From Streptomyces europaeiscabiei (lineage in GTDB: Bacteria; Actinomycetota; Actinomycetes; Streptomycetales; Streptomycetaceae), in the NCBI RefSeq assembly GCF_036346855.1, contig NZ_CP107841.1, forward strand, positions 5,336,001-5,400,000: DNA of 64,000 bases, written 5' to 3'. Position numbers and translations under genes: made by a program. How positions within the stretch are numbered: the first letter of the stretch is position 1; each line of letters starts with the position of its first letter. Below the pieces are notes generated by a model that saw nothing but the letters and a program-made list of their open reading frames with translations, did no database searches and had not been told where the DNA came from. Positions 15,947 to 32,091 of this stretch are shown here, piece after piece.

Positions 15947-16441
15947 ATGTACGGCTACGACCAGAGCGCCGGTTCCCAGCAGCAGTACGCCCCGCCGCCG
16001 CAGCAGCAGATGCCCGGGCAGATGCCCGGCGGCCAGATGGGGGGCGGTTACGGGCAGCAGGCACCGCTGTACCCGGAGCCGTCCCCGCCCTCCCTCGCGG
16101 ACGCTGTGCGGGCCTTCACCACCGGGCAGCTGGCGGCGGAGGACTTCCAGCAGGTCTTCGCGACGTCCAAGGTGTACTGCCCGCGCGGCGACAACCCCGG
16201 GTTCCTGGCGCTGCACAACACGCAGCAGCCGGTGATCCCGATGTTCACCTCGCTCAAGGAGCTCCGCCGGTACGCGGGCAAGGAGTCCAAGTACTTCGTG
16301 ATCACCGGTGCGGAGGTGATCGATCTGCTGCCGACCGGGTACGGCTTCGTCCTCGACATGGAGGGGGAGCACCGGATGGTGTTCGACGCGAAGGCCGTGG
16401 AGCAGATGGTGGAGTTCGCGATGCGGCGGATGTACGGGTAG
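15947..16441 (+). CDS. SseB-like protein with Gln/Pro-rich N-terminus
   Basis: A 164-residue protein: residues 1-45 are low-complexity (Tyr, Gln, Pro, Gly), then an SseB N-terminal-like domain follows (LADAVRAFTTGQLAAEDFQQ, VYCPRGDNPGFLAL, VIPMFTSLKELRRYAG, VIDLLPTGYGFVLDME). Streptomyces proteins of this kind are of unknown function, some linked to type VII secretion or stress. It is divergent from the dehydrogenase gene. Confidence 0.75.
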   Translation: MYGYDQSAGSQQQYAPPPQQQMPGQMPGGQMGGGYGQQAPLYPEPSPPSLADAVRAFTTGQLAAEDFQQVFATSKVYCPRGDNPGFLALHNTQQPVIPMFTSLKELRRYAGKESKYFVITGAEVIDLLPTGYGFVLDMEGEHRMVFDAKAVEQMVEFAMRRMYG

Positions 16442-16764: not shown

Positions 16765-17736
16765 ATGCCCGCAGTGACCGTCGAGAACCCGCTGACCCTG
16801 CCCCGTGTCGCCGCACCGACCGACGCGGTGGCCCGTCCGGTGCTCACCGTGACGACCGCGCCCAGTGGTTTCGAGGGCGAGGGCTTCCCGGTCCGCCGTG
16901 CGTTCGCCGGGATCAACTACCGTCACCTCGACCCGTTCATCATGATGGACCAGATGGGTGAGGTTGAGTATCAGCCTGGGGAGCCGAAAGGGACCCCGTG
17001 GCACCCGCACCGCGGCTTCGAGACCGTCACCTACATCATCGACGGGATCTTCGACCACCAGGACAGCCAGGGCGGTGGCGGCACCATCACCAACGGCGAC
17101 ACGCAGTGGATGACGGCCGGCTCGGGCCTGCTCCACATCGAGGCGCCGCCGGAGTCACTGGTCATGTCCGGCGGTCTCTTCCACGGCCTGCAGCTGTGGG
17201 TGAACCTGCCGGCCAAGGACAAGATGATGGCGCCGCGCTACCAGGACATCCGCGGCGGGCACGTACAGCTCCTCAGTACCCCCGACGGCGGCGCGCTGCT
17301 GCGGGTCATCGCTGGCGAGCTGGATGGGCATGCGGGGCCGGGCATCACCCACACCCCGATCACCATGGTTCACGCGACCGTCGCGCCCGGCGCGGAGCTC
17401 ACTCTTCCGTGGCGGGAGGACTTCAACGGCCTGGCGTACGTCCTCGCGGGCAAGGGCGCGGTCGGCGCGGAGCGCCGCCCGATCCATCTGGGGCAGACCG
17501 CGGTCTTCGGCGCGGGCTCCTCGCTGACGGTCCGCGCGGACGAGAAGCAGGACGCGAACACCCCGGACATGGAGGTCGTGCTGCTGGGCGGACAGCCGAT
17601 CCGTGAGCCGATGGCGCACTACGGCCCCTTCGTCATGAACACCAAGGACGAGCTGCAGCAGGCGTTCGAGGACTTCCAGAAGGGGCGGCTGGGCACGATC
17701 CCGGCAGTGCACGGCATGTCTGAGGGCGGACTGTAG
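16765..17736 (+). CDS. pirin family protein (intact copy)
   Basis: The 323-residue bicupin has the pirin metal site His80, His82, His124 and Glu126 (WHPHRG and LLHIEAPPE). Pirins bind Fe(II) and act as quercetinases or redox-sensing partners; here the role is unknown. A perfect AAGGAGGT ribosome site precedes the ATG. In Streptomyces the pirin gene holds the phiC31 attB site, and the homologous segment here is around codon 75 (16966-17005). Its core reads GAA instead of CAA, and the codons around it (GTT, TAT, CCT, AAA) are poor in G/C at the third position. A second, truncated pirin at 29354-30104 is about 88% identical in protein. Confidence 0.92.
   Translation: MPAVTVENPLTLPRVAAPTDAVARPVLTVTTAPSGFEGEGFPVRRAFAGINYRHLDPFIMMDQMGEVEYQPGEPKGTPWHPHRGFETVTYIIDGIFDHQDSQGGGGTITNGDTQWMTAGSGLLHIEAPPESLVMSGGLFHGLQLWVNLPAKDKMMAPRYQDIRGGHVQLLSTPDGGALLRVIAGELDGHAGPGITHTPITMVHATVAPGAELTLPWREDFNGLAYVLAGKGAVGAERRPIHLGQTAVFGAGSSLTVRADEKQDANTPDMEVVLLGGQPIREPMAHYGPFVMNTKDELQQAFEDFQKGRLGTIPAVHGMSEGGL
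16966..17005 (+). other. attB-equivalent segment in the intact pirin gene
   Basis: The segment aligns by position with the phiC31 attB (GGGGAGCC, core, then GGCACCCGCACC). The core trinucleotide at 16986-16988 is GAA, not CAA, and there is no phage arm on either side. It is therefore neither a clean attL nor a canonical attB. Confidence 0.5.
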
Positions 17737-17917: not shown

Positions 17918-17948
17918 ATCGGGTGTCCTGCGGACTGTGTGCGGACTG
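17918..17948 (+). repeat. 31-bp repeat, copy 1 (possible IS256 end)
   Basis: This 31-mer, containing GTGTCCTGC and GACTGTGTGCGGACTG, recurs in the same orientation at 23056-23086 with two mismatches. Its place about 110 bases before IS256-like transposase homology suggests that it is the left end of that insertion sequence. Confidence 0.6.
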
Positions 17949-18057
17949 GTATGTGAAGTGAAGCTTCTCCTCGACCATGGCCACCATCTCGAGGAGTCAT
18001 CGCCTGTGCGCGCAGAACTCCGTACGTCGACTCCAGAGGGCTGACCCTCTTGGGCTC

Positions 18058-18350: not shown

Positions 18351-18359
18351 ACCGCGACG

Positions 18360-19440
18360 GAAGACTATTGATCCGAAACTCAAAGGGTTCTATTCGAGGA
18401 TGTAGCGGACGTGGGGTCCGCCGAAGTAGCCGCGGACGATGTGTGGCTGACGTTGGCGTCGGTGGAAGAACCGGCGGGTCTCGGCGGCGAGTTGGGCCTG
18501 GTCGCGGGCCCGGTTGTGCATGGGCAGGCTCCGTTTGAGGTCGGCGTTGACCAGTTCGTCGGGGTTCAGTTCCGGCGAGTACGACGGCAGGAAGTGCAGC
18601 TCGATGCGGTCCGGGTGATCGGCCAGCCACGCACGGACCTTGCGGGAGCGGTGAGCGGAGTGGCCGTCCACGACGAGGTGCACTTTGTGGTCGAAGTGGC
18701 CTACGAGCCGGTCCAGGAAGCGGCACATGACGTCGGCGTCGAAGGTCTCGGTGAAGACCATGAAGTGCATGCGGCCCTTGGTGCTGATCGCGGACATCGC
18801 GTTCACCGAGAACCGGTTGCCCGTGCGGCGCACGATGGGGGTGCACCCCTGGCGCCCCAGGTGCGGCCGGTGACCTGGTCGGAACGGATGCCGACCTGGT
18901 CGGCGAAGAGCACCTCCCCGCCCGCGGCCCTCGCCCTGGCCCGGATCGCTGGCCAGGTCTCCTCCCACCAGACGCGGACCGCTTCCGCGTCCTGTTCGAC
19001 GGCCCGCTTGTCCGGGCGCTGGAAGGACAGGCCCCAGCGGCGCAGGTACTTGCCCACGCCCTGGTCGGTCAGCCGCACCCGGTACAGCTTCGCGATCAGG
19101 TCCCCCACTCCCGCCCGCGTCCACAGCTGCCCCGCCAGCCCCAGGTCACAGGGACGGTGATCCAGTACGGCCTGCCGGATCGCCTGCTGTTCGACGGCGT
19201 CGAGAACCTGATGTTCGCCGACCCCGCGTCCGCGCGGCTGAGCTACGAGCGCTTCGCGCCCGTCGGCCAGCCACTTCCCCCACCAGTTGTCCACCGCCTT
19301 GAGCGAGACCCGGAACACCGCGGCGACATCCTCGCGAGTCCGGCCCGCCACCAACGCGGCCACCGCCCGCAGCCGAAGAGCCTCCTGCGCTGACGGCGGC
19401 AACTGCCGTGAAGCCCAAAGTTGTGGATGTACACTCAAGA
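18360..19440 (-). mobile_element. IS630-family insertion sequence
   Basis: The transposase described separately fills this segment. Weakly similar inverted ends can be aligned at about 18367 (TCCGAAACTCAAAGGGTTC) and, inverted, at about 19405-19425. Exact ends and the TA target duplication were not established. It sits inside or beside the IS256 remnant. Confidence 0.55.
18390..19438 (-). CDS. IS630-family transposase, two overlapping frames
   Basis: The upstream frame (19438 to about 18850) holds helix-turn-helix domains (LRLRAVAALVAGRTREDVAAV) and the first catalytic aspartate (LFADQVG). The downstream frame (to 18390) holds VVDGHSAHRS with the second aspartate and SPELNPDELVN with the glutamate. 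Joining them needs a -1 shift at TGGGGC near 18858, giving RTWG then RQGCTPIV, which restores the family consensus. It may be a programmed frameshift or a mutation. The DDE residues are all present. The start is uncertain; TTG 19438 is used. Confidence 0.7.
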
Positions 19441-19532
19441 TCCCTCGCGGGGGATTCCCGCCAATGCGGCCTTCGCTCAATTCACCTCGTGATGCACACG
19501 CCTGCTCGCGATTCCAAACAAGAGGTACAACT

Positions 19533-19964
19533 GTGCGTAAGTTAGGAACCCGTAGTACCTGGAAGCGGATCGGTATGGTTGCTTCCATCTCGACCCTCCC
19601 ATTGGCCCTCGCGAGCCCCGCTTGGGCTGTCGTGAAGGAATCGTTCGTACAGGCTGGAGTCGCCGGCTTCAACTCGAAGCCTCTGACCGATGACGGAGGT
19701 AGCGGCGGGAACAAGGTGGACTTCACCGGATGCCATACGGACTTGGGCAGAAGTGTGACTGTTCAGCTGCGTCGTGCTGTCATCGGACCCGACACCGGAT
19801 TCGACACAAAGACGTACACGGCATGCTTCAACGGTGGAACGTCGTCCGGCGAGTGGGGTGCCGGAACCGAGGGCCACGACTACTACTTCCGCATCACCGA
19901 GGTCGATGGTAATTCGATAGTCGGCCCGACGATCAGCGTCGATAAGACCCGTATGTCGTTCTAG
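19533..19964 (+). CDS. small secreted protein of unknown function
   Basis: A 143-residue product with a Sec signal peptide (basic KLGTRSTWKR, then a hydrophobic stretch ending SPAWA-V near residue 31), so the mature part is about 110 residues. It contains two cysteines (DFTGCHTDLG and YTACFNGG), which could form a disulfide, and is otherwise rich in Gly, Thr and Asp. I do not recognise the family. The GTG start at 19533 has GAGG eight bases upstream. It lies 108 bases before an ABC transporter operon on the same strand, and may be its substrate or partner. Confidence 0.7.
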   Translation: MRKLGTRSTWKRIGMVASISTLPLALASPAWAVVKESFVQAGVAGFNSKPLTDDGGSGGNKVDFTGCHTDLGRSVTVQLRRAVIGPDTGFDTKTYTACFNGGTSSGEWGAGTEGHDYYFRITEVDGNSIVGPTISVDKTRMSF

Positions 19965-20072
19965 GTGACACTGGATTCTGAATACCTGGGTGGAGACCTG
20001 AAACGCAGGTCTCCACCTGCCTCTTGATGAAACAGACAGAGGCACCCCCACGCTGAAATACCAAGGTGTCGC

Positions 20073-20831
20073 ATGCCCATTTCGATGTCCGAGTGTTTCT
20101 TCTCCTATCGGCGTAGACGCCCGGTGCTGCGTGATCTCAGCTATACGCTGCCGCCCGGGCGGACCGTGCTCCTGGGGCCGAACGGAGCGGGAAAGAGTAC
20201 CCTGTTGGGCTTGTGCGCATCTGCGCTGCGCCCCGATTCCGGTTCCGTCACCTATGGCGACCTGAGCACCGGCCGGCGTCGCGCGCTGCCCGCGTTCCGT
20301 AGGCGTGTGGCATGGATGCCTCAGCAGGTGGGGCAGGTGCCGGGGCTCACGGCCCGGGATCAGGTCGCGTATTCCGGTTGGCTCAAGGGGATGCCCCGGC
20401 GCGAGGCGTGGCGTCAGGCTCTCAAGGCCCTGAACCGCGTGGAGTTGGCCGATCGGGCGGATGACAAGGTCCAGGAACTCTCCGGGGGGCAGCAGCGGCG
20501 CGTCGCAGTGGCGCAGGCCCTCGTGCATGACGCAGAGGTCCTTCTCCTCGATGAGCCGACAGCGGGTATGGATCCCCGGCAGCGGCAGGTCTTCCACCAG
20601 ATTCTCGCCGATCTGTCGAAGGAGGTGCACATCGTTCTCTCCACCCATGACACCTCGGACATCGCCAACTCGTACGAATCGGTCGTGGTTCTGTTGGACG
20701 GTCAGGTGCGCTTCTCGGGAACGGTGGTGGACTTCCTTTCCCACGCGAGCGCGACGGCGACATCCGACGAGCAGCGGGCCACCTCCGCTTATCAGGAATT
20801 CACCGAGATCGATGGGGCGATCTCGTGGTGA
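20073..20831 (+). CDS. ABC transporter ATP-binding protein
   Basis: A complete 252-residue ABC ATPase: Walker A GPNGAGKST near residue 33, Q-loop MPQQVG, signature LSGGQQRR, Walker B VLLLDEPTAGMD and H-loop STHD. It resembles the single-domain ATPases that pair with ABC-2 type exporters. Its stop overlaps the start of the next gene by four to seven bases, so it is the first gene of a three-gene operon encoding an exporter-like complex at the membrane. Confidence 0.93.
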   Translation: MPISMSECFFSYRRRRPVLRDLSYTLPPGRTVLLGPNGAGKSTLLGLCASALRPDSGSVTYGDLSTGRRRALPAFRRRVAWMPQQVGQVPGLTARDQVAYSGWLKGMPRREAWRQALKALNRVELADRADDKVQELSGGQQRRVAVAQALVHDAEVLLLDEPTAGMDPRQRQVFHQILADLSKEVHIVLSTHDTSDIANSYESVVVLLDGQVRFSGTVVDFLSHASATATSDEQRATSAYQEFTEIDGAISW

Positions 20832-22171
20832 ACCGATTCCCCTTCGCTCGACACTCGGCCGTCATCGGGCTCGGAGCCCCGACGGTGGCTCTGGCCATAT
20901 ACTTCACCGCCTACCAGCCCATGCCGTTCACCGGTGAGGATTCCATCGTCGTGGTCTCGGTGGCCCTGAAGGTCGCCGCGCTGGGAATCGCCTTGGTGGC
21001 CGCCTGGGACGCAGGGAGGCTTCGCCAGGCTCGGATCACAGCCGCCCCGTCCAGCCGCCACCTGCTGCGAATACTTGTCGATGCGATGGCCCCCACCCTG
21101 GCCCTGGTGATCATCAGCTGGGTGGCGTCCTTCCTGTTGGTGATCAGCTATCTGGGAGGCCCCGCACCAGGGCTCCACGACACCGTTCCAATGGTCCGAA
21201 GTCTTGCGATCCCCTTCAGCGCAGTAGCAGTCGGTTTCTTCCTCGGGCTCTCCCTTCCGCCCGTTATCGCCCGCCCCCTTGCGGTGGTGATCACGGCGCT
21301 GTGGGTCTTCGTCGCCTATACGCTGGGTATCCCATGGCTGCGGGCGATATCCGGATTCGACATGAGCACTCCGACCTATACGGATGTCGTGGACCGCGCC
21401 TACCTCATGGCACCGGCGATCCTGGCTCTCGGGCTGCTGCTCGGTCTTGTCGCGCTCAGCCTGCTCTCACGTCCGGCGCTGCGCGCCGCCGCCGTGGCCT
21501 GCTGCGTCCTCGCGGGCTTCGGGGCGTCGTATCCTCTGGTGAGTGACGCCCCGCGCTACGCCGACCCCACCGTTCCCCGCACTTGGGCAACGACGTGTGA
21601 GCGAACTGCCCCGGTGATCTGTGTGCCCGGCGAGTTCGCCGACGACATCCCCGCGCTGCACCGCTCCGCTCAACACGCGCTGCCCCGCCTGCGAGAGGTC
21701 GGGTTCACCCCACCCCGGAAGCTGGCCTTCGTCTCGGAGGATCTACCGCTGGCACGCGACACCTGGCGAACCTTCCTCCAGAAGCCGGTGACCCGCCACC
21801 GCAGCCGGGCCGTCTACGTCAGCGCCTTGGTTCCGACAGGGCTCCACGACTGCCCGGACCTTCCTGATGACTACGTTTATCCGGGGCGCGGAGCCGCTTC
21901 CGCCTGGATCGGCCTGACGGTTGGGATGTCACAGGCAGAGGCCGCCCGCAGCTACGGACCCAGCGGTGTGTACCGGGCACGCTGGGTGCGCAGCCTCCCC
22001 GAGGCGAAGCAGTACGCCTGGTACAAGCAGCAGTTGAGTTACCTCGAGTCATGCGACGAGCAGGTCCACGAGAAGGCCCGGGCGGGAGCCAAGGCCGAGA
22101 ACGAGCGGGGCCGAGCGCTGGGCCCGCAGTTGGAGGATCCGGCGGACAGGGCACCGGGGGTGGACCGTTGA
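20825..22171 (+). CDS. ABC-transporter-associated membrane protein with extracytoplasmic domain
   Basis: A 448-residue protein. Residues 1-240 have about seven hydrophobic segments, then an extracytoplasmic or soluble domain of about 180 residues follows. That domain has four cysteines (CERTAPVIC, HDCPD, LESCDE). A charged C-terminal helix ends it. The transmembrane part is probably the permease for the upstream ATPase. It resembles a DUF7224-type Streptomyces protein as I recall, but this is not certain. The start could be GTG 20825 or GTG 20828; the latter overlaps the ATPase stop as GTGA. Confidence 0.75.
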   Translation: MVNRFPFARHSAVIGLGAPTVALAIYFTAYQPMPFTGEDSIVVVSVALKVAALGIALVAAWDAGRLRQARITAAPSSRHLLRILVDAMAPTLALVIISWVASFLLVISYLGGPAPGLHDTVPMVRSLAIPFSAVAVGFFLGLSLPPVIARPLAVVITALWVFVAYTLGIPWLRAISGFDMSTPTYTDVVDRAYLMAPAILALGLLLGLVALSLLSRPALRAAAVACCVLAGFGASYPLVSDAPRYADPTVPRTWATTCERTAPVICVPGEFADDIPALHRSAQHALPRLREVGFTPPRKLAFVSEDLPLARDTWRTFLQKPVTRHRSRAVYVSALVPTGLHDCPDLPDDYVYPGRGAASAWIGLTVGMSQAEAARSYGPSGVYRARWVRSLPEAKQYAWYKQQLSYLESCDEQVHEKARAGAKAENERGRALGPQLEDPADRAPGVDR

Positions 22172-22755
22172 CCCTCTGGGCGCGCGTACGAAGAATCTGG
22201 CTGCTGCCTGTGGCCCTGTTCGCCTGGACGCTCCTCCTTGTACTCGTGCGCGACGACGTGGCGAAGGTTCCCCAGATCGCCGCGCAGGGCAGCTTCTCGA
22301 TCAAGCTGATGAACTTCGTCCCGCTCATCCTGTGCATTCCGACGATGTACTGCATGAGCCGGCGCCTCATCGCCACCGAAACCACAGCGGCGCGAGCGGT
22401 CGCCGTCGTCGACCGGCTGGCTCTCCTGCTTCTGGGGGTGAGCGCGGCGGGACTGGGGTTTGCACTCGGGGAGTTCCTGGACATGCCGACAGCGGTGGCG
22501 GGCGGACGAAACACCGTCATGGTGCTGGGCCTCGCTCTCCTCGTACACAGCTGGTACGGCCCGATCGCCGGTGGCGCGGCGGCGACCATGTTCGTGATGG
22601 TCAGCATTGTCACCGGCCTGGCGGGAGACCAGAGGCCGTACCCGTGGGCGGTTCTCCTGATGGAGTCCACCAGCGTCGTGGCGGCAGTCGTGGCGGCGGT
22701 CAGTTTCACTGCCGGTCTGATCACGATGTCGTACCGCCGACAGATACCGGGTTGA
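22168..22755 (+). CDS. multi-spanning membrane protein of the ABC operon
   Basis: A 195-residue very hydrophobic protein with five or six predicted membrane helices and no large loops. TTG at 22168 overlaps the stop of the preceding gene as TTGA, so translation is coupled. It is probably the second membrane subunit of the transporter. No family is recognised. Confidence 0.75.
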   Translation: MTLWARVRRIWLLPVALFAWTLLLVLVRDDVAKVPQIAAQGSFSIKLMNFVPLILCIPTMYCMSRRLIATETTAARAVAVVDRLALLLLGVSAAGLGFALGEFLDMPTAVAGGRNTVMVLGLALLVHSWYGPIAGGAAATMFVMVSIVTGLAGDQRPYPWAVLLMESTSVVAAVVAAVSFTAGLITMSYRRQIPG

Positions 22756-22761
22756 CATGCC

Positions 22762-22781
22762 CCTCGGGCTGAAGCCCGAGG
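22762..22781. terminator. hairpin after ABC operon, IS605-like end
   Basis: CCTCGGGC and GCCCGAGG form an 8-bp stem (22762-22769 with 22774-22781) directly after the operon. The sequence around it (ATGCCCCTCGGGCTGAAGC, then GAGGATTCTGGCC) looks like the right-end hairpin of IS200/IS605-type elements as I recall them. It may serve as terminator of the operon. Confidence 0.5.
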
Positions 22782-22790
22782 ATTCTGGCC

Positions 22791-22964
22791 GTCCCCTACC
22801 CGGTGCTGTGCGAGGAAGACCCCAAGGCCGGGGACTACAAGGTGGAGCTCTCCGAAAGGTTCGTCGGCACGGCGGCGGGCGGGGTCCGCGAGTACGTCGT
22901 CGCACCTCCGCTGCACGCCGAGATCGACAAGGACCTGTCCCTGGTCAAGAGTGCCGTCACCTAG
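22791..22964 (+). pseudogene. C-terminal fragment of an unknown protein
   Basis: An open frame without a start encodes 57 residues (VPYPVLCEEDPKAGDYKVEL and onward to LSLVKSAVT) and a TAG stop. Composition and codon bias look genuinely coding. It begins abruptly at the IS605-like hairpin, so it is the tail of a gene cut by an insertion or deletion. The family is not recognised. Confidence 0.5.
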
Positions 22965-22969
22965 TAGTG

Positions 22970-23019
22970 GGCCAGGTCATCGCCCTGCGGGGATCTCCCC
23001 GCAGGGCGATGACCTGGCC
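22970..23019. repeat. 50-nt perfect palindrome
   Basis: Two 24-base arms (22970-22993 and 22996-23019) are perfectly complementary with only TC between them. The arm begins GGCCAGGTCATCGCCCTGCG. It directly follows the stop of the protein fragment, so it could be a terminator, but the near-zero loop is more typical of a recombination or insertion product. Confidence 0.85.
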
Positions 23020-23055
23020 GTTCACTGATGACTGGCGATGGGGGCGGCGGCCGTA

Positions 23056-23086
23056 ATCGAGTGTCCTGCAGACTGTGTGCGGACTG
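23056..23086 (+). repeat. 31-bp repeat, copy 2
   Basis: Same-orientation copy of the 31-mer at 17918-17948 with two differences. There is no transposase homology next to it, so it is probably a solo insertion-sequence end. Confidence 0.6.
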
Positions 23087-23238
23087 CCGAGCGCTACTCG
23101 TGGCTCAGAAGAGTGGGATGCCGAGGTTTGCCGAAACCAACTGGGCAACCCCTGTCCAGCCCAGGGCGGGCAGGTTAGCCCTGGCGCTCTGAAGCACCCT
23201 CTCCGCGAGCTGGCGAACCCGACCGGACTCAGGCGCGG

Positions 23239-23403
23239 CTATGCGAGCTCCGCCTGCAGAGCCTCCACGTCGGCGACGACCATGGCTCGGACCTCCTCTG
23301 GCACGTCCGCTGACTGCGCGGCGGCCAGAACCTTGCGCGCGAACTGCGTGAGCTGCTGGGGGTCGTAGCCGAAGGTGTTGTTCTGGGTGTTGTCCTGTCC
23401 CAT
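23239..23403 (-). CDS. small hypothetical protein of the element
   Basis: A 54-residue frame starts at ATG 23403 (MGQDNTQNNTFGYDPQQL) and ends in VEALQAELA with a TAG stop. The C-terminal half could form an amphipathic helix. The codon bias is that of a real gene and it lies downstream of the relaxase on the same strand. I do not recognise it. Confidence 0.5.
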   Translation of the reverse strand: MGQDNTQNNTFGYDPQQLTQFARKVLAAAQSADVPEEVRAMVVADVEALQAELA

Positions 23404-23549
23404 CTGGGGCGCGCTCCCGTTAACGGTGTGCTCGCCGTGCGGCCTGGTGCACCCGCTGCTCCGAGCGGAACCGAAGCAGCCTGACGCGAAGCCGTGGCAG
23501 AACAGTCGATGCCCCCGCCGCGCCGTATGGCGAGGGCATCCGGCCGGGT

Positions 23550-25251
23550 TCAGCGGTGCCGACCACGTTCTTCGGACGTCATGTTCACTGGCGTGGCCGG
23601 AGGACGTGGAGCAGCGGAGGCGGACGTCGTGCCGCTTGTGGTGCTTTGCTTACGTGCTGCCTGTGCTCGCCTGTTCGGTTGAGCGGTGATGCGCCAGTTG
23701 AGGACCTCAGCGGGGCGATCGGCGGTGTCGAGTTCTCGCCGTGCGGCTACTTCGGCCAAGAGGTGTCGGGGGTTGTGGCCGGCGGTCTCGGCGCGGGCGA
23801 GGGTCGTGGTCAGGGCGGGCCAGGTGGGATCGGCGAGGACGCGGTCGGCGTGGTCGGGGAGGACTGCACGCAGATCCTGCTCGAAGCGGCTGGCGGTTGT
23901 GGCGCGCGGTGCACGACGGGCGAGATCCGCCAAGACCGGCTGGGCGGCCTGCTGGTAGCCGGCCTGCAGATGGCGGAAGGCTTCTTCGGCCGCTGCGGCC
24001 TGCTGCTCGTGGCCGCGCTGCTCATGCCACTTGGCGGCCGCGCGCGCCACGTGGAGCGCGGCGAAGATCAGGGCGATGGCGAGTCCGCCCGGATCGTGTG
24101 TGGCGTAGGCGAGTTCCTTGGCGGCTTCCCGTAGGGCGGTGGCGGCCTGGTGATCGGCTCGGATCACCGAGTGGCGGGCACGGTTGAACGCCCTTGCGGC
24201 GGCTTGCAGTTCGGCTCGGTGCCCGCCGTTGGCGGTGAGGGTCAGGTTGTGGAGGGCGTCGCCGAAGGCATCCAGATGTCCCTGGGCCGCGGCGTCGTCG
24301 CCCGAGTCGAGGGCGGTGTGGGCGTCGCGGACGGCGGTCTCGGCGCGGTGCCGCGGTTCGGCTGGGTCTACCGCCTGCTCGGGGCGGTCGGCCAGATCCT
24401 GGGTGGGAAGGCGTTCGCAGAGGCGGTTGTAGGACAGGTCGGGAGCGAGCCGTGAGCCGCCGTACCAGACCGGCTCACCTTGGGTGGTGTCGCCGGGAGC
24501 GGCCAGGCTGTAGCCGGTCACCTCGCCGGTCTCGGGGCCTATGCGCGGTTTGACCTGGATGCCGAGGGAGCGCAGCACGGTGAAGTACTCGTCGATGCTG
24601 CGTACGGCGGCGGCGACCGCGTACGCCTGCTCGCGCAGCCACTCCCGCGCGGTCTCATTTTGGCCCTGGCGTTCCACCTTCGCCCGCTCGGCGCCGGTCG
24701 GGGTACGCGGGGCGGTGAGGTCGCCGGACTTCAGGCCGCGCAGCCCGAACTCGGCCTCGATCTTTCGGCATTCGCGCTGTGCCCGCCAGCCGTCCCGGTT
24801 CGTACGGGGGCGGCGGCCGTCGGCTCGGACGTTGGTGGCCATGATGTGGATGTGGTCGTCGGCGTGCCGGACCGCGATCCAGCGGCACGCCTTGTCGTCT
24901 CCCTCGGGGGGCGATGCCCGTGGCGGCTACGACGCGGCGGGCAACCTCGGCCCACTCAGCGTCGGTGAGGTAGCGGTCGCCGGGCGCGGTGCGCACCGGG
25001 CAGTGCCACACATGCTGCGGTGGCTGCTTTCCGCCGAGTTCCCGGGTGCGCAGGTCGACGTGGTGGTCCAGGCGTCGGGCGAGCTGGGTGTAGGTGGCGG
25101 AGGGGTCGCGGCCGGGGTCGGGGGCGCCGGCCAAGTCCCAGGCCGCCACGATGTGGGGGTCGGTGTGTTCGTCGCGTCGACCCTTGCCGAAGAGGTAGTT
25201 GATCAGGCCGAGCGTGCTGGCGCCGGTGGAGACGTCAGGAACCATGACCAA
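23550..25251 (-). pseudogene. relaxase / mobilisation nuclease, frameshifted
   Basis: The first frame (from ATG 25251 or 25245) gives the MobP-type relaxase N-terminus (LINYLFGKGRRDEHTDPHIV, HVWHCPVRTAPGDR, ATGIAP). At the six-G run 24906-24911 one extra base throws it out of frame. In the other frame the protein continues as EGDDKACRWIAVRHADDHIH, including the metal-binding HxDxxHxH motif, then ATNVRADGR and a long helical C-terminal region to 23550. Full length would be about 565 residues. It overlaps the MobC stop, so they formed one transcript. Either it is a true mutation, a programmed slip, or a sequencing error in a homopolymer. Confidence 0.8.
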
Positions 25252-25969
25252 CCCCTTCCGCCAGGAGCCGGTCCATCAGTGCGTAACTGGCCTGGGCGGC
25301 CTGCTCAATGCGTTCGAGGACGGCCTTGGCGCGCTCGGGTATCGCGCCGGAGTGGATGGCTGCCGCGACCTGGTTGAGGTTGGTGCCGACCCGGTTCAAC
25401 GCTTTGGTGTGGGCTTCGATGGCCTCCACCAGCGGGCGGATGGGGTCGTCCTCTGGACTGCCGATCACGCTCGCCTTGCCGAGCGCTACGGCGAGGGCGG
25501 CGTCGCCGACGAAGCTGGCGAACTTCTGGTGGCGCCGCCTGGCCTCGGCGTCGATGAGGCGGACCGCGGTCGGTGTGAAGCGGATTTTCTTCTCTTGGTC
25601 GCGCTTCTCGGTGGTGCGCTTGCGGTTCATCCGCGCGGGCAGCGCGGGAACGTCCGGCTCACGCCACGAGGGCTGCTCGACGGCGGCGGGCGGTCGACGG
25701 GCAGACGGCTCGGCATATGGGGTGACGGAGTCGGTGACGGGCTGCTCGGCGCTGTCGGCGGCAGACGCGGTGCGGGGCTCGTTCACCTCAAGCTCGGGCG
25801 CCCGCTGGCGCCCGGCCCCCTCTTCCTCCGCTACCCCAGGGGCGGAGGCAAGCGAGGACGAAGCCCCGTTAGGGGCTCGTTCGCTCCAGCTTGCTGCCGT
25901 TCGTCGGTCCCGGTTGAACCAACCCCAGCGGCGGGGAGAAGAGGGGTTCGTGTCGTTCGCAGTGTTCAT
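25235..25969 (-). CDS. MobC-family relaxosome accessory protein
   Basis: A 244-residue protein: a long Pro/Ala/Ser-rich N-terminus (about 1-125) and a C-terminal MobC domain (KKIRFTPTAVRLIDAEARRR, KFASFVGDAALAVALG, ALNRVGTNLNQVAAAIHSG). MobC proteins help the relaxase to open oriT. ATG 25969 was chosen over 26053 because GGAG lies seven bases upstream. Its stop overlaps the relaxase start. Upstream at 26091-26122 lies a 12-bp hairpin that may be part of oriT. Confidence 0.85.
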   Translation of the reverse strand: MNTANDTNPSSPRRWGWFNRDRRTAASWSERAPNGASSSLASAPGVAEEEGAGRQRAPELEVNEPRTASAADSAEQPVTDSVTPYAEPSARRPPAAVEQPSWREPDVPALPARMNRKRTTEKRDQEKKIRFTPTAVRLIDAEARRRHQKFASFVGDAALAVALGKASVIGSPEDDPIRPLVEAIEAHTKALNRVGTNLNQVAAAIHSGAIPERAKAVLERIEQAAQASYALMDRLLAEGVGHGS

Positions 25970-26090
25970 GTTGGTGCTCCGGTGCAGCGAGGGATGGGGC
26001 TGTGTCACGTCCGTCGCATCCGTCGCACGCCTGGTCAGCACAGGTACGGACACGCGGGCAGGTACGGAGAACTCCGTCTCGGCGACAAAG

Positions 26091-26122
26091 TCCGTCCCCG
26101 CGCTGACCTGCGCGGGGACGGA
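26091..26122. repeat. 12-bp perfect hairpin upstream of mob genes (possible oriT)
   Basis: TCCGTCCCCGCG and CGCGGGGACGGA enclose CTGACCTG. Partly related CGTCGCATCCGTCGC sequences lie at about 26008-26022 and, inverted, just after the hairpin (GATGCGACGC). Position 120 bases upstream of mobC fits an origin of transfer, though a terminator for the minus-strand gene at 26153 is the simple alternative. Confidence 0.5.
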
Positions 26123-26152
26123 TGCGACGCAGTGATACGGACCCCGGTGGGA

Positions 26153-26548
26153 TCAGAGAGCGCGCTTGGGTCCGGCGGGTCCACCGGGCGGGCCGACAGG
26201 CAGCGTCCCCGCCGAGGCGGCGGGCGGCTTGCTCTGGGCCATGCGGGCAGGAAAAGCGCCGTGTTCGGGCTCGGGTGCCGCCTCGACGAGGTCGGGGCAG
26301 TTGCGATGCGTAGTCCCCAGGCCCGATAGGGGATCACCGTTGCTCGCTGAGCCAGGCAGCGGATCAACTGCGGTGGCCTGCTCCCCGGGGCCGGAGCTGT
26401 GGGGACCGACTGGCTCAGCAATGCGGTCCTCGCCCTGGGGACGTGCGGCGGGATTCGATTCGAGCGACAGCATCGTCTGGCCGGGAATGGCGATCGGCGG
26501 CCAGATGACCTTCGTGGTGTTCTGCGGGTTGGGGAAGGTGTCTTCCAT
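26153..26548 (-). CDS. hypothetical Pro/Ala/Gly-rich element protein
   Basis: A 131-residue frame (MEDTFPNPQNTTKVIWPPIA) with AGGAG just before its ATG at 26548. The first 30 residues look structured, the rest is Pro/Gly/Ala-rich and probably disordered. It lies between the candidate directionality factor and mobC on the same strand. No family is recognised. Confidence 0.5.
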   Translation of the reverse strand: MEDTFPNPQNTTKVIWPPIAIPGQTMLSLESNPAARPQGEDRIAEPVGPHSSGPGEQATAVDPLPGSASNGDPLSGLGTTHRNCPDLVEAAPEPEHGAFPARMAQSKPPAASAGTLPVGPPGGPAGPKRAL

Positions 26549-26666
26549 AGTGCTCCTGGGGTGCGCGCAGGCAGAGGCCCGCTACGCGGGGTGGATTCGT
26601 TCGGAAACGCCACTCAGGCGGCGAGGCTCAGCGCAGCGTTGGACGCCCAGGGGCCGAGCACTTTCA

Positions 26667-27371
26667 CTACGGGCTTGTGGTAGCAGACCCGGCGGCCATT
26701 TTGGGTCGGGAACTCGACTGTTTGGATGGCGAGTTCGCAAAGCGCTGCGTCGCCATCGCGGCCAGTTGAGTGCGTATCCGTTGCACCCCCTCGGCGAAGC
26801 GCCAGGAGGAGGACCTGAAGCGGAACGAGCCGACGTCAGGACATCCGGCCAGGCGGAACAGAAGAGTCGTGACCGGCTGCGGCCCCTGGCCACGCCTGGC
26901 CCGCGCCTTGCGTTCGGCCATGGTGGACGGGCACCCACAAGGGTGACCTGCATCAGCTTCCGGGGACAAGAGCACACGCCCGTTGCAGTGGTGTGCGAGG
27001 CCACGGGAGTCCCACAGCTTCATCTGCGCCGTCAGCCTGTCTGGATCCTCAATGCGGACTTGGAGACCGGCCTTCTCGGCTACGACTTCGAACTGTTCCG
27101 GGCTGGTGGCCAATCGCCGCCGCGGCTCGGCTCCGAGTACGCTCGTGACGCTTTCTGCGGTCTGCGGCGGCACCGTGAGAAGACGCCAGACCGGCTGGGC
27201 GATCAGCTTGCCGTCAACGACGCGACCGAAGTCGCAGTCACCGACGACCGGTTCAGATGCCCCGGGCAGCGAGCAGGTCCGAGGGGTGCCGAGTCGCTGG
27301 TGACGGCCAGAAAAATCACCGCTGGCCGGCGAAGCGGCGGCCATGCTGAATCCGGGTGCGGGATTGTGCAA
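26667..27371 (-). CDS. candidate recombination directionality factor (Gp3-like)
   Basis: A 234-residue protein. Its centre (LTAQMKLWDSRGLAHHCNGR, HPCGCPSTMAERKARARRG, TTLLFRLAGCPDVGSFRF) resembles the RDF-like proteins of Streptomyces elements with large serine integrases, as I recall them. In phiC31 the Gp3 protein binds integrase and reverses it from integration to excision. Its position 160 bases downstream of a phiC31-type integrase gene, on the same strand, supports this. The CxC and paired His could bind zinc. TTG 27371 is used as start since AGGAG precedes it; ATG 27344 is possible. Confidence 0.6.
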   Translation of the reverse strand: MHNPAPGFSMAAASPASGDFSGRHQRLGTPRTCSLPGASEPVVGDCDFGRVVDGKLIAQPVWRLLTVPPQTAESVTSVLGAEPRRRLATSPEQFEVVAEKAGLQVRIEDPDRLTAQMKLWDSRGLAHHCNGRVLLSPEADAGHPCGCPSTMAERKARARRGQGPQPVTTLLFRLAGCPDVGSFRFRSSSWRFAEGVQRIRTQLAAMATQRFANSPSKQSSSRPKMAAGSATTSP

Positions 27372-27530
27372 GAGACGGGCTCCTGATAGCTGGGAGACGC
27401 AGGGGCGCCAGAGCAGCGACGTGGCTGCCCGGCGCCCCCGAGGACACCGTCAATGCTCCGGAGAATGACCGGTTTTCCTAACCGGCGATGTGGGTGTACT
27501 CTCCCTCGCTCGTCCCGGATCTGCGGCGCA

Positions 27531-29309
27531 TCAGACCGCTACCGCGAACACCTCCCCCTGCTGTGATTCGCCAGCCTCTGTGTCATCGCCCTTGGTCTGT
27601 TCCGGTCGTACGAACTCGACCTTTGCCCGCTTCTCGACAGGCGTCGACCTCCCCGCACCGGACGCCTTCGTGACCACGACCCTGCTCACGAACAACTTGA
27701 CGAAGTCCCGGCGCTCCTGCGTCGTCGCGGCCTCCCACCACGAGCCCTCGCCCACCGGATCGACGTCTCCCGCGCCGATCGGCAGCCACAGGTGGATCGG
27801 GAGCGTGGGCGTCGCCGCCTCCTCCAGCTCTGCGAGGCGTGCTTCCGCCCGCTCCATCCGCCCGAGGAGCCGTTCCCGCCGCTCGCGGAACCGGCGTCGG
27901 CCGACCGGGTCGTCGTAGTCGCCGGCCTCTTCTCTGTCGTACAGCTCCTCCAGCGCGTGCTTGGCATCAGCGCGTTCGGTGACGAGACTGCGGCGTTCAC
28001 CCACGATCTCCGGCTGTTCCGTCTGTGCCGTGTACCGCCGGGCAGCCTCGGCGAGAATGACCGCCGTCTCGGGGTCGTCCTCGGCCGTCTGGATGAGGGC
28101 GAAGATCCGCCGGGCAACGTACAGGTCCAGGGCCTGCATGCTGATCGTGCACTCGCCCTCGTGCTGGCCCGGCAGCGCTTTCCGGCGGCGGCAGCGGTAC
28201 GCGGCCTTGTTGGGCGTGGTCGCGCGGTGTGACGTCATCACTGCGCCGCAGTCGCAGAACAGGAGGTCCATGGCGGAGAGCACGGCGTGCCCCCGGGACA
28301 GGCCCTTGCCCTGACCCCTGCCGTCGAGCCACTCCTGCAGTTCATGCCACTCGTCCGGCGTGATGATCGGCGGGTACGCCTGAACCGGCTTCATGGTCTC
28401 GGGGTCGCGCTCGATTCGGTAGCTCTCGATGGCGCTGGTCAGCTTGCCGTCTTCCCGGCGCTTGTACACCGGGATTGCCGCATAGCCCGCGATGCGGGGG
28501 TCCCGGAGGATGCGCATGGCCGTCTTCGGATCCCAGACGCTGTCTTTTGTCTTCTTGCCGACCCTCTGCCCCTTCGTCGGGACGCCGTCTGCTGTCATCT
28601 GGGCGCAGATGCCCGTGAGGGAGCCCGGGTGCCGACGTCCGCCTCCCGGCTGGTACGGCATGTCCTTGTGCTTCTTGATCCGCGCCCACATGTCCTGGAT
28701 CACCGGGACTTCGTCGGGATCGTGCTCCAGGATCTGGATCACGACTGGCCTGCCCTCGGGCGTCATGCGGGTCACGGGGACCATACGGAAGCCGTACGGC
28801 GGTTTCCCGCCCACGTAGCCTCCGAGCTCCAGCGCCGCCTTCTTCGCCGCCCGGACGGCGTCGCTCTTGTTCTTGCTCTCGCTGTGAGCCGCGTCGAGCC
28901 GCAGGATCAGATGGATCAGGTCCATCAGATTGCCTTTGCGGAACTCGCCCTCGGTGAGGCTCACGATCGTCACGCCGAGGTTGAGCAGTTCCGTGACGAT
29001 GGGGATGGCGTCGAGCGGGTCCATCCGCGACAGGCGGCTGATGTAGTAGACGATGATCAGGTTGATCCGGCCGTCGTGGCAGTCCTTCAACAGTCGGTCG
29101 AAGTCCGGGCGACCGTCGCCCGTGAACGCGGATATGCCGAGGTCCTCGTACTCGGTGACGCTGACGGCCCCGCGCCGCTTCGCCTCGGCCACGCCCGCAG
29201 CGCGCTGTGTGACCGTGCTGACCTCGGACTTGTTGGCGCGCCCCACGGACTGACGCCCATAGACCCCTGCATGGATGTCCATGCCGGTCACCACCCCTGG
29301 TCTGATCAT
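27531..29309 (-). CDS. large serine integrase, phiC31 type
   Basis: This 592-residue integrase aligns along its length with phiC31 Int as I recall it: GVVTGMDIHAGVYGRQS with catalytic Ser21, MDPLDAIPIVTELLNLGVTI, ELGGYVGGKPPYGF, MRILRDPRIAGYAA, and WLDGRGQGKGLSRG. The zinc ribbon has Cys352, Cys354, Cys373 and Cys387, and the coiled-coil region lies at about 425-500. All expected domains are present, so it should be active. It sits 45 bases from the attachment core, reading away from it, as usual for a phage-type int next to attP. The target is the pirin gene, as for phiC31. Confidence 0.95.
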   Translation of the reverse strand: MIRPGVVTGMDIHAGVYGRQSVGRANKSEVSTVTQRAAGVAEAKRRGAVSVTEYEDLGISAFTGDGRPDFDRLLKDCHDGRINLIIVYYISRLSRMDPLDAIPIVTELLNLGVTIVSLTEGEFRKGNLMDLIHLILRLDAAHSESKNKSDAVRAAKKAALELGGYVGGKPPYGFRMVPVTRMTPEGRPVVIQILEHDPDEVPVIQDMWARIKKHKDMPYQPGGGRRHPGSLTGICAQMTADGVPTKGQRVGKKTKDSVWDPKTAMRILRDPRIAGYAAIPVYKRREDGKLTSAIESYRIERDPETMKPVQAYPPIITPDEWHELQEWLDGRGQGKGLSRGHAVLSAMDLLFCDCGAVMTSHRATTPNKAAYRCRRRKALPGQHEGECTISMQALDLYVARRIFALIQTAEDDPETAVILAEAARRYTAQTEQPEIVGERRSLVTERADAKHALEELYDREEAGDYDDPVGRRRFRERRERLLGRMERAEARLAELEEAATPTLPIHLWLPIGAGDVDPVGEGSWWEAATTQERRDFVKLFVSRVVVTKASGAGRSTPVEKRAKVEFVRPEQTKGDDTEAGESQQGEVFAVAV

Positions 29310-29336
29310 GGGGGGACTCTAGCCGATTTTTTGACC

Positions 29337-29378
29337 CCCCAACTGGTTTCACCCAAGAGCACCCCCTGGCACCCGCAC
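29337..29378 (+). other. attachment-site junction (attR) in pirin
   Basis: Reading rightward: CCCCAACTG (29337-29345), eight bases, then CAA (29354-29356), then pirin sequence GAGCACCCCCTGGCACCCG. In phiC31 attP read on the strand with core CAA, the same CCCCAACTG plus eight bases precedes the core; in attB the right side is a GC-rich segment with GGCACCCGCACC. The junction therefore has one phage arm and one bacterial arm, as expected for an attR made by integrase. Confidence 0.85.
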
Positions 29379-30104
29379 CGCGGCTTCGAGACCGTCACGT
29401 ACATCATCGACGGGATCTTCGACCACCAGGACAGCCAGGGCGGTGGCGGCACCATCACCAACGGCGACACCCAGTGGATGACGGCCGGCTCGGGCCTCCT
29501 CCACATCGAGGCGCCGCCGGAGTCCCTCGTCATGTCCGGCGGTCTCTTCCACGGCATCCAGCTGTGGGTGAACCTCCCGGCCAGGGACAAGATGATGGCC
29601 CCGAGGTACCAGGACATCCGCGGCGGCCAGGTCCAGCTGCTCACCACCCCCGACGGCGGCGCGCTCCTGCGCGTCATCGCCGGTGAGCTGGACGGCCACG
29701 AGGGACCGGGCGTCACCCACACCCCGATCACCCTGCTCCACGCCACCGTCGCGCCGGGCGCGGAGATCACCCTGCCGTGGCGCGAGGACTTCAACGCCCT
29801 CGCGTACGTCCTCGGCGGGCGCGGCACCGTCGGTGCGGACCGGCGTCCGATCCAGCTCGGCCAGACGGCCGTCTTCGGCGCGGGCTCCTCGATCACCTTC
29901 CGCGCGGACGAGCAGCAGGACTCCAACGCCCCCGACCTGGAGATCGTGTTGCTCGGCGGGCAGCCGATCCGTGAGCCCATGGCCCACTACGGCCCGTTCG
30001 TCATGAACACCCGCGACGAGCTGCAGCAGGCGTTCGAGGACTTCCAGAAGGGACGGCTGGGGACGATCCCGGCGGTTCACGGGATGACCTCCGAGGGGCT
30101 GTAG
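29355..30104 (+). pseudogene. pirin 3' fragment split off at the attachment site
   Basis: The fragment begins exactly at the crossover core and encodes about 248 residues from TPWHPHRGFETVTY to the stop. These correspond to residues 77-323 of the intact pirin with about 88% identity. It retains the metal-binding residues but lacks the first 75 residues and promoter. In-frame extension back through the integrase region on the plus strand is only antisense sequence. It is followed by a strong terminator at 30121-30165. Confidence 0.9.
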
Positions 30105-30120
30105 GTCCGCGGCGAAGCTC

Positions 30121-30165
30121 AGGAAAGCCCCGTCCACACGTCATACGTGGACGGGGCTTCTTCCT
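30121..30165 (+). terminator. terminator after the pirin fragment
   Basis: A 13-bp perfect stem (30125-30137 with 30147-30159), extended by AGGAA/TTCCT, lies 20 bases after the pirin stop. Confidence 0.85.
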
Positions 30166-30200
30166 GCGCGTTCTCTGTACTCGGTGGAGCGCGCGCCACC

Positions 30201-30245
30201 AAAGGCGGTAAGGGCGGTAAGGGCGGTAAAGGTGGTAAAGGCGGT
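30201..30245 (+). repeat. five 9-bp tandem repeats
   Basis: Units of AAGGGCGGT with small changes (AAAGGCGGT, AAGGGCGGT twice, AAAGGTGGT, AAAGGCGGT) follow one another without gaps. Confidence 0.85.
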
Positions 30246-30570
30246 AGGGGCTGACCTTCTTCGCCGATCGGGCTACGGAAGTGGTCCGGGTTCACTGCCT
30301 TTCGGGTGATCATGCCCACCCGAAAATGACTGGATCGGGTATCTTCCCCCCGCGTAGGTTCTGACATGTACACCCGGTCGGCTGACCTCCGGAACGGGTG
30401 GCTCTCAGGGGGAGATCAGTACTCGGATCCGCCTTGGCCTGTGGCCAGGGCGTGATTCGGCGTGCCCGCTGCCCTCACCGTATGAACAGGGGAACGGGGA
30501 GAGAAAACATGGGCAGAGTGCTTGATGACAGGGGTTTCCGCCGCCCGGACGCCCCCAGATCCCCGATCGC

Positions 30571-32091
30571 TTGAGTACCGATGCTCCGCTGCCTCTGATA
30601 TCCCGCATGGCCGTCACGGCCGTCACGACTGCCTGCTCGGCGGCTGTGGCCGTGGTGCGGCGTCTGCCGCTCTGGTCGGTCCCGACGGGGTGGACTCTCG
30701 CGCTCGGCCTGTGGGGGCTGTCCCGGCAGCACACCGTGTGGCGGGACGAGGCCGCGACCTGGCAGGTGGCGCGGCGGTCGGCCGCCGACATCTGGCACAT
30801 GCTGGGGCAGGTCGATGTCGTCCACGGGTTCTACTACCTGCTGATGCACGGTCTCTTCGAGTGCTTCGGACCCGGCACGACGACCCTGCGGCTGCCCTCT
30901 GTGCTGGCCATGGCGGTCGCGGCCGCCTGTGTGACGGTCATCGGCCGCCGGCTGGCCGGGGTCTGGGCGGGCCTGGGGGGCGGGCTGGCGTTCGGGCTGC
31001 TGCCGGCCGTGCAGTTCCATCTCCAGGAGGGTCGCCCGTACGCGTTGATCGCGGCGGGCGCGGGAATCTCGACGCTGCTGCTGGTCACCGTGCTCCAGCG
31101 GGAGCGGGGCGGCCGAGGGGCGCACCGGGCGGCCTGCTGGGCGGGGTACGGGGCCGCGGTCCTGGTGTGCGGGCTGTTGAACTGGCTGTCGTTGCTGATC
31201 GTGCCCGCGCATGCGGCGACCCTGGCGTGGACGGGGGTGTCGCGGGCGACATGGGCACGCTGGGCGGCGGCCTCGGTGGTCGCGACGGCGGGTGTCCTGC
31301 CGTTGGTCCTGTTCAGCCGGAGACAGTCCGGCCAGGTGTCCTGGATACCGCCGCTGACCTGGCACATGATGATCGGCCCGGCGATCCTGCTGACGATCGG
31401 CGGCATCGGAGCCCTGCTGAACCGGCCGCGGGCGGGGCGGCTGTCGGTGGCGGCCGTCGCGCTGCCGCTGTTGGCGGTGCCGCAGATCGGTCTGCTCGGC
31501 CTCTCCCTGTTCCGCCCCCTGTTCCTGGAGCGCTACGTCCTCTTCAGCATGCTCGGGCTGGCGCTCCTGATCGGGGCGGCCCTGAGCGCGGCGGTAGGGG
31601 CCGTCCGGCCGCGGTTCCCGAGGGCGTCGTCGTGGCTCGTCCCGGTGGTGGTCGCCGTCGCGGTGGTGGCGCTGTTGCCGCAGTCGCTGGCCAAACGGTC
31701 CCCCGCCAGCCGCGTCGACGACGTCCTCGCGACCGCCGAGGACGTGCGACGTCTGAAGCAGCCCGGCGACGCGGTGCTGTTCGCCCCGTCTGCCCGGCGC
31801 GACACCGCGCTGGTCTCCCCCGAAGACTTCGCGGGGTTACGGGACATCGCGCTGGCGCGGAGTCCCACGCTGTCCGGGACGCTGAAGGGGGTGGAGGCGG
31901 ATCCGGCCCGGATACGGGCCGCGATGCTGGCGGAGCGGCGCATCCTGTTGATCACCGACGCGCCCGGCGTGGCCCGGCCGCTGACGGGCGGACGGGACGA
32001 GGTGAAGGCCGCCGTGCTGAAGAAGTACTTCACCGTGGTGGCGGACGAACGGACCCATGGGCGGCGGCTGATCGTGTACGAGCGGCTCTGA
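30571..32091 (+). CDS. glycosyltransferase family 39-like membrane protein
   Basis: A 506-residue polytopic protein with about 11 hydrophobic segments. The first large loop carries VWRDEAATWQVARR, where the Asp-Glu pair matches the catalytic acidic motif of GT-C enzymes (GT39/ArnT type). These use polyprenyl-phosphate sugars to glycosylate proteins or lipids outside the membrane. A second loop (FHLQEGRPYAL) follows the usual pattern, and the C-terminal 150 residues form a soluble domain. TTG 30571 is used; ATG 30607 is a shorter choice and no ribosome site decides. Confidence 0.78.
   Translation: MSTDAPLPLISRMAVTAVTTACSAAVAVVRRLPLWSVPTGWTLALGLWGLSRQHTVWRDEAATWQVARRSAADIWHMLGQVDVVHGFYYLLMHGLFECFGPGTTTLRLPSVLAMAVAAACVTVIGRRLAGVWAGLGGGLAFGLLPAVQFHLQEGRPYALIAAGAGISTLLLVTVLQRERGGRGAHRAACWAGYGAAVLVCGLLNWLSLLIVPAHAATLAWTGVSRATWARWAAASVVATAGVLPLVLFSRRQSGQVSWIPPLTWHMMIGPAILLTIGGIGALLNRPRAGRLSVAAVALPLLAVPQIGLLGLSLFRPLFLERYVLFSMLGLALLIGAALSAAVGAVRPRFPRASSWLVPVVVAVAVVALLPQSLAKRSPASRVDDVLATAEDVRRLKQPGDAVLFAPSARRDTALVSPEDFAGLRDIALARSPTLSGTLKGVEADPARIRAAMLAERRILLITDAPGVARPLTGGRDEVKAAVLKKYFTVVADERTHGRRLIVYERL

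What the first reader, a model, noticed from the sequence alone, without database searches (positions are those of the whole stretch)
29337..30104. phiC31-type integration junction splits a pirin gene
The arm CCCCAACTG, eight bases, then a CAA core has the same geometry as phiC31 attP read on one strand. It is fused at the core to pirin codon 76 onward. An integrase closely resembling phiC31 Int lies 45 bases away. From known biology phiC31 attB is in the Streptomyces pirin gene, so a non-phage, mobilisable element appears to use the same site and a related integrase.
Basis: partly seen in the sequence, partly recalled or inferred. Interest (0 to 1): 0.8.

Follow-up and report, generated by a model that had tools for sequence, protein, structure and literature searches.

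The report
Mobile element carrying spare target gene
A family of Streptomyces mobile elements inserts into the pirin gene at the site used by phage phiC31, but brings along its own complete, rewritten pirin gene, so the host seems to keep the gene that the insertion breaks.

Summary
The junction is real: at 29337-29378 a phiC31-type attP arm and AA core join the native pirin 3' part, 45 bp from an integrase 53% identical to phiC31 Int. But pirin is not simply split. A complete pirin lies 12 kb away, at the insert's other end (16765-17736). In four of eight related genomes the left junction survives and shows the plan: native pirin to codon 75, attL, a complete second pirin inside the element, cargo, RDF gene, int, attR, native pirin 3' part. 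All 11 element pirins examined are altered at the att site: none has Ala70; codon 75 is AAA in 9, Arg in 1, AAG in 1. In the window the two 5' parts appear to have recombined, leaving one chimeric pirin and no attL, so the element is probably locked in place. The altered tract also occurs in 17 of 388 sampled Streptomyces genomes without this integrase lineage, plausibly scars of lost elements. Two separate integrase lineages sit beside such pirins; one shared origin is not excluded. My reading: a mobile element carrying a recoded rescue copy of its target. Expression of the copy, and resistance of its site to the integrase, are inferred.

The parts
15947..16441 (+). native left flank, sseB-like gene
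   Evidence: collinear with G108, 97.6% aa identity; name by position and recalled synteny, supported by passages of PMC13118837
16765..17736 (+). complete pirin: chimera of native 5' part (to about codon 60) and element-borne 3' part
   Evidence: 20-codon windows: codons 1-60 95-98% like native G108 and 77-88% like G125 rescue copy; from codon 61 on 90-100% like G125 rescue copy. Codons 81-140 are 95-98% like G108 too and do not discriminate
16969..16991 (+). recoded att tract (codons 69-75 and two bases)
18390..19726 (-). IS630-family transposase in two overlapping frames
   Evidence: NF033545 above cut-off; PF13358, PF13592
20073..22755 (+). cargo: ABC ATPase, DUF7224 protein, and a third ORF without family hit
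   Evidence: PF00005, PF23866
23550..25251 (-). relaxase-like gene in two frames, offset by one base
   Evidence: no Pfam hit itself; 40% and 54% identical to pieces of the G200 gene that hits PF03432; one open frame in G125, not in the window
25235..26053 (-). MobC-like gene
   Evidence: no Pfam hit itself; weak tblastn match to the G200 gene (E 1.5e-9) that hits PF05713
26667..27371 (-). recombination directionality factor-like, Gp3-like
   Evidence: PF18897 E 1.3e-9, above cut-off
27531..29309 (-). phiC31-type large serine integrase, 592 aa
29337..29378 (+). attR: P arm 29337-29345, core AA 29355-29356, then pirin B' arm
29357..30104 (+). native pirin 3' fragment
   Evidence: 97.4% identical to G108 pirin
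30571..32091 (+). native right flank, mannosyltransferase-like gene
   Evidence: collinear with G108, 92% aa identity; NF052499 far below its cut-off

Best explanation
An integrated, probably locked element of a family that uses phiC31-type integrases to enter pirin at codon 75 and carries beside attP a complete pirin gene whose att site has been rewritten. Int joins attP to the pirin attB, splitting the gene. The element's own pirin then lies just behind the split native 5' part (27-82 bp after its stop codon in the 4 genomes with an intact left end) and replaces its function. The rewriting keeps Int from using the rescue copy as attB, which would also let the element insert into itself. Later the two adjacent 5' parts can recombine: this leaves one intact chimeric gene under the native promoter, deletes attL and fixes the element, as in the window. 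A further exchange with the native 3' part could remove the rest and leave a recoded pirin. Shown: junctions, empty site, second gene, its recoding, chimeric structure. Inferred: expression, rescue, resistance to Int, the recombination route.
For: All 9 genomes with lineage-A integrase (window, G068, G125, G200-G205) have a pirin 3' fragment against the integrase start and a complete pirin, in 8 of 9 on the same contig. Four keep the native 5' fragment and attL with arm CAGTTGGG (G201 CGGTTGGG) at the mirror position. Joining the flanks of G068 and G200 at the core gives open pirin frames of 325 and 316 aa and a near-palindromic attP. Ala70 lost in 11 of 11 element copies against 18 of 68 others (Fisher 4e-6); AAA at codon 75 in 9 of 11, but in 0 of 52 other Lys codons of the same genes. 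In 5 of 9 genomes (G000, G125, G200, G201, G202) the rescue 3' part is closer to some other genome's native pirin than to its own host's 3' fragment by 6 points or more; G200: 75.5% against 90% (nucleotides). Window pirin is a chimera with a switch near codon 60. Passages of PMC8994273 and PMC12924846 report or suspect phenotypes when phiC31 vectors inactivate pirin.
Against: No expression or recombination data. G068's rescue copy is closer to its own 3' fragment (91.5%) than to any sampled native (88.2%), and in G203-G205 the two values differ by at most 1.2 points, so foreign origin is not general. G013, an element-free native, is 96-97% like the rescue 3' parts of G000 and G125 yet has a native att tract. 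G201's rescue keeps AAG at codon 75. Ala70 is also absent in 8 of 58 natives without the shared tract. In G203 the complete pirin and int are on different contigs. The 5' switch was seen in G000, G205 and G122; G125, G202 and G203 lack the 5' fragment but their chimera was not shown. Of the four intact left ends only G204's rescue copy has, by eye, a native-type promoter. Lineage B's 3' fragment is decayed (G154, by eye) or was not found (G122).
Confidence: 0.82

Rival explanations
1. Plain gene disruption: a phiC31-type element inserted in one of two pirin paralogs that the host already had.
For: Some Streptomyces have a second close pirin (e.g. G009, 66% identical).
Against: In G068, G200, G201 and G204 the complete copy lies between attL and attR; empty relative G108 has one pirin at this locus; in 5 of 9 genomes the complete copy is clearly foreign to the host's own 3' fragment.
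Confidence: 0.05
2. The pirin copy is cargo, but its different att tract is drift or codon noise, not escape from Int.
For: Element genes often have odd codon use; 8 of 58 natives without the tract also lack Ala70; G201's copy keeps AAG; the tests are not corrected for relatedness.
Against: AAA is absent from the other 52 Lys codons of the 11 element copies; the change sits in the att region and is met by several codons (CAG, CAA, GAA, GGG) in two integrase lineages.
Confidence: 0.15
3. The recoded tract in element-free genomes is an old native polymorphism that elements picked up, not a scar of lost elements.
For: 4 of the 10 close-read alleles have AAG at codon 75; no element genes were found in the 7-14 kb around them; 3 of 10 show no significant excess of differences in the tract.
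Against: The tract is short, spans the core, and is 25% different from the nearest native while the rest is 11% different; control natives 8.9% and 9.9% (the alleles were chosen by codons 69-70, which inflates the first number). AAA is 1 of 245 Lys codons outside the att region in 58 natives.
Confidence: 0.35

Closest known systems
phage phiC31 (integrase, attP, attB in pirin)
   Same: Integrase 53% identical, same arm-core geometry, same target gene and codon, Gp3-like RDF gene
   Different: No Streptomyces phage among the 9 phage records with a pirin match; no pirin in 14 IMG/VR phiC31-like integrase loci, which are partial
Integrative mobilizable elements with serine integrases
   Same: Integrase plus relaxase-like and MobC-like genes, internal site in a gene
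   Different: The 2017 review PMC5704250 (passages) says such IMEs disrupt dispensable genes and that no RDF had been identified for them; here an RDF-like gene and a full second target gene are present
Actinomycete ICEs (pSAM2-type)
   Same: G068 element has RepSA, FtsK/SpoIIIE and GntR genes
   Different: None of these among the 10 window ORFs scanned; most AICEs use tyrosine integrases (PMC3218068 passages)
Gene-restoring genomic islands
   Same: Target function kept after insertion; [quoted passage not shown] SXT in prfC recalled
   Different: As described for IMEs one end of the target is rebuilt by the att repeat; here a whole second gene with rewritten att site is carried. Whether the islands meant in PMC12884075 include such cases was not seen

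Membership tests
phiC31-type large serine integrase | Resolvase and recombinase domains with catalytic Ser motif | tested here: met
   PF00239 and PF07508 above cut-off, zinc ribbon below cut-off; RQS motif aligned with phiC31
phiC31-type large serine integrase | attP arms, AA core, pirin attB | tested here: met
   one arm and core in window, both arms in G068, G200, G201, G204
phiC31-type large serine integrase | recombination activity | not testable with these tools
   needs assay
Integrative mobilizable element | relaxase and MobC genes, no own transfer machine | tested here: inconclusive
   remote homology only; relaxase frame broken in window, open in G125 and G200
Integrative mobilizable element | att sites on both sides | tested here: not met
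   attL not found in window; present in 4 relatives
Actinomycete ICE | Rep and FtsK-type translocase | tested here: not met
   none among the 10 window ORFs scanned; met in G068
Gene-restoring island | att repeat rebuilds one end of the target | tested here: not met
   complete second gene instead

The most novel reading that the evidence does not exclude
A natural cut-and-rescue cycle: elements insert into pirin, supply a recoded copy immune to their own integrase, and through homologous recombination convert the host allele to the recoded form. Loss of the element then leaves hosts carrying pirin alleles resistant to this whole class of phages and elements, so a mobile element rewrites a conserved host gene across a genus.
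Probability: 0.45. Interest if true: 0.87.

Novelty: new variant of a known kind. Interest (0 to 1): 0.74.

Why it matters
It would be a natural counterpart of the recoded-rescue design used in engineered gene drives (recalled), at a much used integration site in Streptomyces engineering. It would explain how a serine integrase with a site inside a useful gene can avoid the cost of breaking it, suggests pirin-sparing vectors, and warns that some strains have a natural pirin allele that phiC31 vectors may not enter. The integrase-resistance claim is directly testable.

Tried and rejected
Rejected: paralog model. Chance motif. Phage origin of the window element: of 7 window proteins scanned against PHROGs only the Int and the RDF-like protein matched. 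Plasmid form: 98 plasmid records match Int, all below 60% identity. Other lineages carrying a copy of their target: self-comparison of 9 stretches around non-pirin integrases (L012-L015, L118-L122) found no direct repeat of 180 bp or more, but the stretches are partial. Rfam found nothing in 16000-31000. I first took 26 pirins that lack codons up to about 88-94 for biology; their common right end and draft-only assemblies point to vector trimming. A link between the recoded tract and other phiC31-like integrases (4 of 19 against 13 of 369, Fisher 0.007) was seen after the fact and not used. Gene conversion between the two 5' parts was considered; that stretch is similar in native pirins too, so no claim is made.

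Rows dropped before counts: of 70 native loci, G047 (motif not matched) and L116 (G005, split frame, dropped) are left out, giving 68. Of these, 53 come from the even draw (5 with the tract) and 15 were picked because they hold a phiC31-like integrase or were fetched as related loci (5 with the tract), so 10 of 68 is enriched; 17 of 388 is the even figure. G031 is counted as native although its pirin resembles the G154 rescue copy. G199/G125, G205/G230 and G208/G266 are the same genomes reached twice, by identical coordinates. One search listed only part of its matches; the 28 genomes were chosen from its best E-values, 2 of them proved full-length, and 6 genomes without a match plus incomplete ones were not followed.

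Papers: PMC11530663 read parts 1-2 of 6; passages of PMC3783163, PMC13118837, PMC9513070, PMC12924846, PMC8994273, PMC3218068, PMC11891168, PMC5704250, PMC12884075; Gupta 2007 not held, recalled only; Tala 2018 seen only as cited. Listings (titles and starts of abstracts) named no pirin-carrying element.

Full report
WHAT IS THERE. The junction is as described: CCCCAACTG at 29337-29345, 8 bases, CAA at 29354-29356, then pirin. The phiC31 record reads the same on the opposite strand. Int (27531-29309, -) is 53.4% identical to phiC31 Int. A Gp3-like RDF gene (PF18897) sits beside it.

THE OTHER HALF. A whole-genome search found a complete pirin at window 16765-17736 and the 3' fragment at 29352-30104. 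G108, a close relative, has the same neighbours (acyl-CoA dehydrogenase, sseB-like gene, pirin, mannosyltransferase-like gene) with one uninterrupted pirin; the window differs by an insert of about 12.4 kb.

RELATIVES SHOW THE PLAN. Of the loci found, nine genomes including the window form integrase lineage A (60% identical or more). In all nine a pirin 3' fragment adjoins int, and all nine have a complete pirin, in eight on the same contig. In G068, G200, G201 and G204 the left end is intact: native pirin to codon 75, core AA, an arm CAGTTGGG (CGGTTGGG in G201) at the mirror spacing, then a complete pirin gene starting 27-82 bp after the stop of the split frame. Joining the native flanks of G068 and G200 gives an open pirin frame; core-to-core lengths are 16.7 and 15.6 kb. 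In the window, G125, G202, G203 and G205 no 5' fragment passed E 1e-30 (for G205 = G230 none at 1e-8) and no attL was seen before the complete gene.

RECODING. The commonest native reading at codons 69-75 is close to TAC GCG CCG GGC GAG CCC AAG; five of the nine lineage-A rescue copies have TAT CAG CCT followed by GGG or GGA, GAG, CCG or CCA, AAA, and G205 differs from these by CCC at codon 71; G201, G202 and G204 carry other changes. Over 11 element copies (9 lineage A, 2 lineage B) Ala70 is lost in 11 of 11 and in 18 of 68 others (p 4e-6); codon 75 is not AAG in 10 of 11 and 9 of 68 (p 6e-7); AAA is 9 of 10 Lys codons at 75 and 0 of 52 elsewhere in these copies (p 5e-10). Species relatedness is not corrected for. 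By my count codon 70 falls at about attB positions 14-16 from the core; in the related LI integrase, attB changes at positions 15-18 were disruptive, 13-14 tolerated, and 11-12 also sensitive (PMC3783163 passages). That phiC31 attB positions 15-16 matter is recalled (Gupta 2007, not held).

CHIMERA. In 20-codon windows the window pirin is 95-98% identical to G108 over codons 1-60, 83% at 61-80, 95-98% again over 81-140, and 77-93% from codon 131 on; against the G125 rescue copy it is 77-88% over windows that start before codon 61 and 90-100% after. The stretch 81-140 is similar in both and does not discriminate. G205 (against G049) and G122 (against G206) switch near the same place. So the window gene looks like native promoter and 5' part joined to element 3' part. 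For G125, G202 and G203 a chimera was not shown. The route (homologous recombination between adjacent 5' parts) is inferred. With attL gone and the relaxase frame broken (open over 563 codons in G125, five stops in the window), the window copy is probably no longer mobile.

MOVEMENT. Compared over codons 81-314, the rescue copy is clearly closer to another genome's native pirin than to its own host's 3' fragment in 5 of 9: G000 96.0 against 88.7%, G125 96.6 against 91.5, G200 90.0 against 75.5 (nearest is G022, itself a tract carrier), G201 89.9 against 82.3, G202 88.5 against 78.1. In G203, G204 and G205 the difference is 1.2 points or less, and in G068 the own fragment is the closer one (91.5 against 88.2). 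So horizontal movement is supported for some, and exchange with the host copy may blur the rest. G013, which has no element and a native att tract, is the nearest native of G000 and G125, which fits recent exchange with such a host but does not say in which direction.

TWO LINEAGES, TWO ELEMENT TYPES. In an integrase tree of 38 rows, lineage A (9 rows, support 95/88) and lineage B (G154 and G122, about 40% identical to ours) are separate (two changes of the label; a single origin is not ruled out by the well supported branches, and the root is a midpoint). phiC31 and the phage contigs V123 and V129, the neighbours of lineage A at weak support (84/77), carry no pirin in the stretches held. G154 and G031 have a native 5' fragment of 46-48 codons followed by a complete pirin; G154 has what looks by eye like a decayed 3' fragment after int, and G031 has no such integrase. 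G200 carries relaxase and MobC genes by Pfam, and the window relatives of them; G068 carries RepSA, FtsK/SpoIIIE and GntR; G204 an FtsK-like gene. Of 20 genomes with related integrases searched for pirin, 17 had a full-length pirin hit on another contig or at least 50 kb from int; the other three are G122, G154 and G230 (= G205).

FOOTPRINTS. The 23-base recoded tract occurs in 21 of 392 genomes (reversed-pattern control: none in the rows shown); 4 hold lineage-A integrase, 17 of 388 do not. In 10 such alleles read closely, codons 68-78 differ from the nearest native at 25% of bases against 11% elsewhere; for 58 control natives 8.9% and 9.9%. The alleles were chosen by codons 69-70, which inflates the 25%. 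Seven of the ten pass p 0.05 singly, three do not. Four of ten have AAG, not AAA, at codon 75. No element genes were found in the fetched 7-14 kb around them. This fits short scars of past elements; an old polymorphism is not excluded.

WHY RESCUE. A passage of PMC8994273, citing Tala 2018, says that a phiC31 vector which inactivated pirA in S. ambofaciens lowered spiramycin production and changed phenotypes, and that restricted differentiation in S. albulus might have the same cause; PMC12924846 names a possible redox effect. A spare copy would remove that cost.

LIMITS. No experiment. Sampling is one genome per species. Lineage B rests on three genomes. Literature was searched only in the held library (nine searches).

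Noticed in passing
L215-L237, L240-L242 (26 genomes): At least 26 of 392 Streptomyces assemblies lack pirin sequence from somewhere between just before the ATG and about codon 57 up to about codon 88-94, with nearly one right end. All 26 are drafts of 40 or more contigs. This matches the attB fragment used in vectors (recalled) and looks like vector-screen trimming of genuine sequence.
   Followed up: partly
L056 9167-11233 (-): G068 element carries an AriAB-like (PARIS, name recalled) gene, PADLOC E 5.7e-32.
   Followed up: no
window 20073-22171: ABC ATPase with DUF7224 protein as cargo, function unknown.
   Followed up: no
window 23550-25251: Relaxase-like reading frame is broken; the G125 relative is open over 563 codons.
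   Followed up: partly
genomes G190, G266, G333, G369: Recoded pirin tract is commoner in genomes with other phiC31-like integrases (4 of 19 against 13 of 369), seen after the fact.
   Followed up: no
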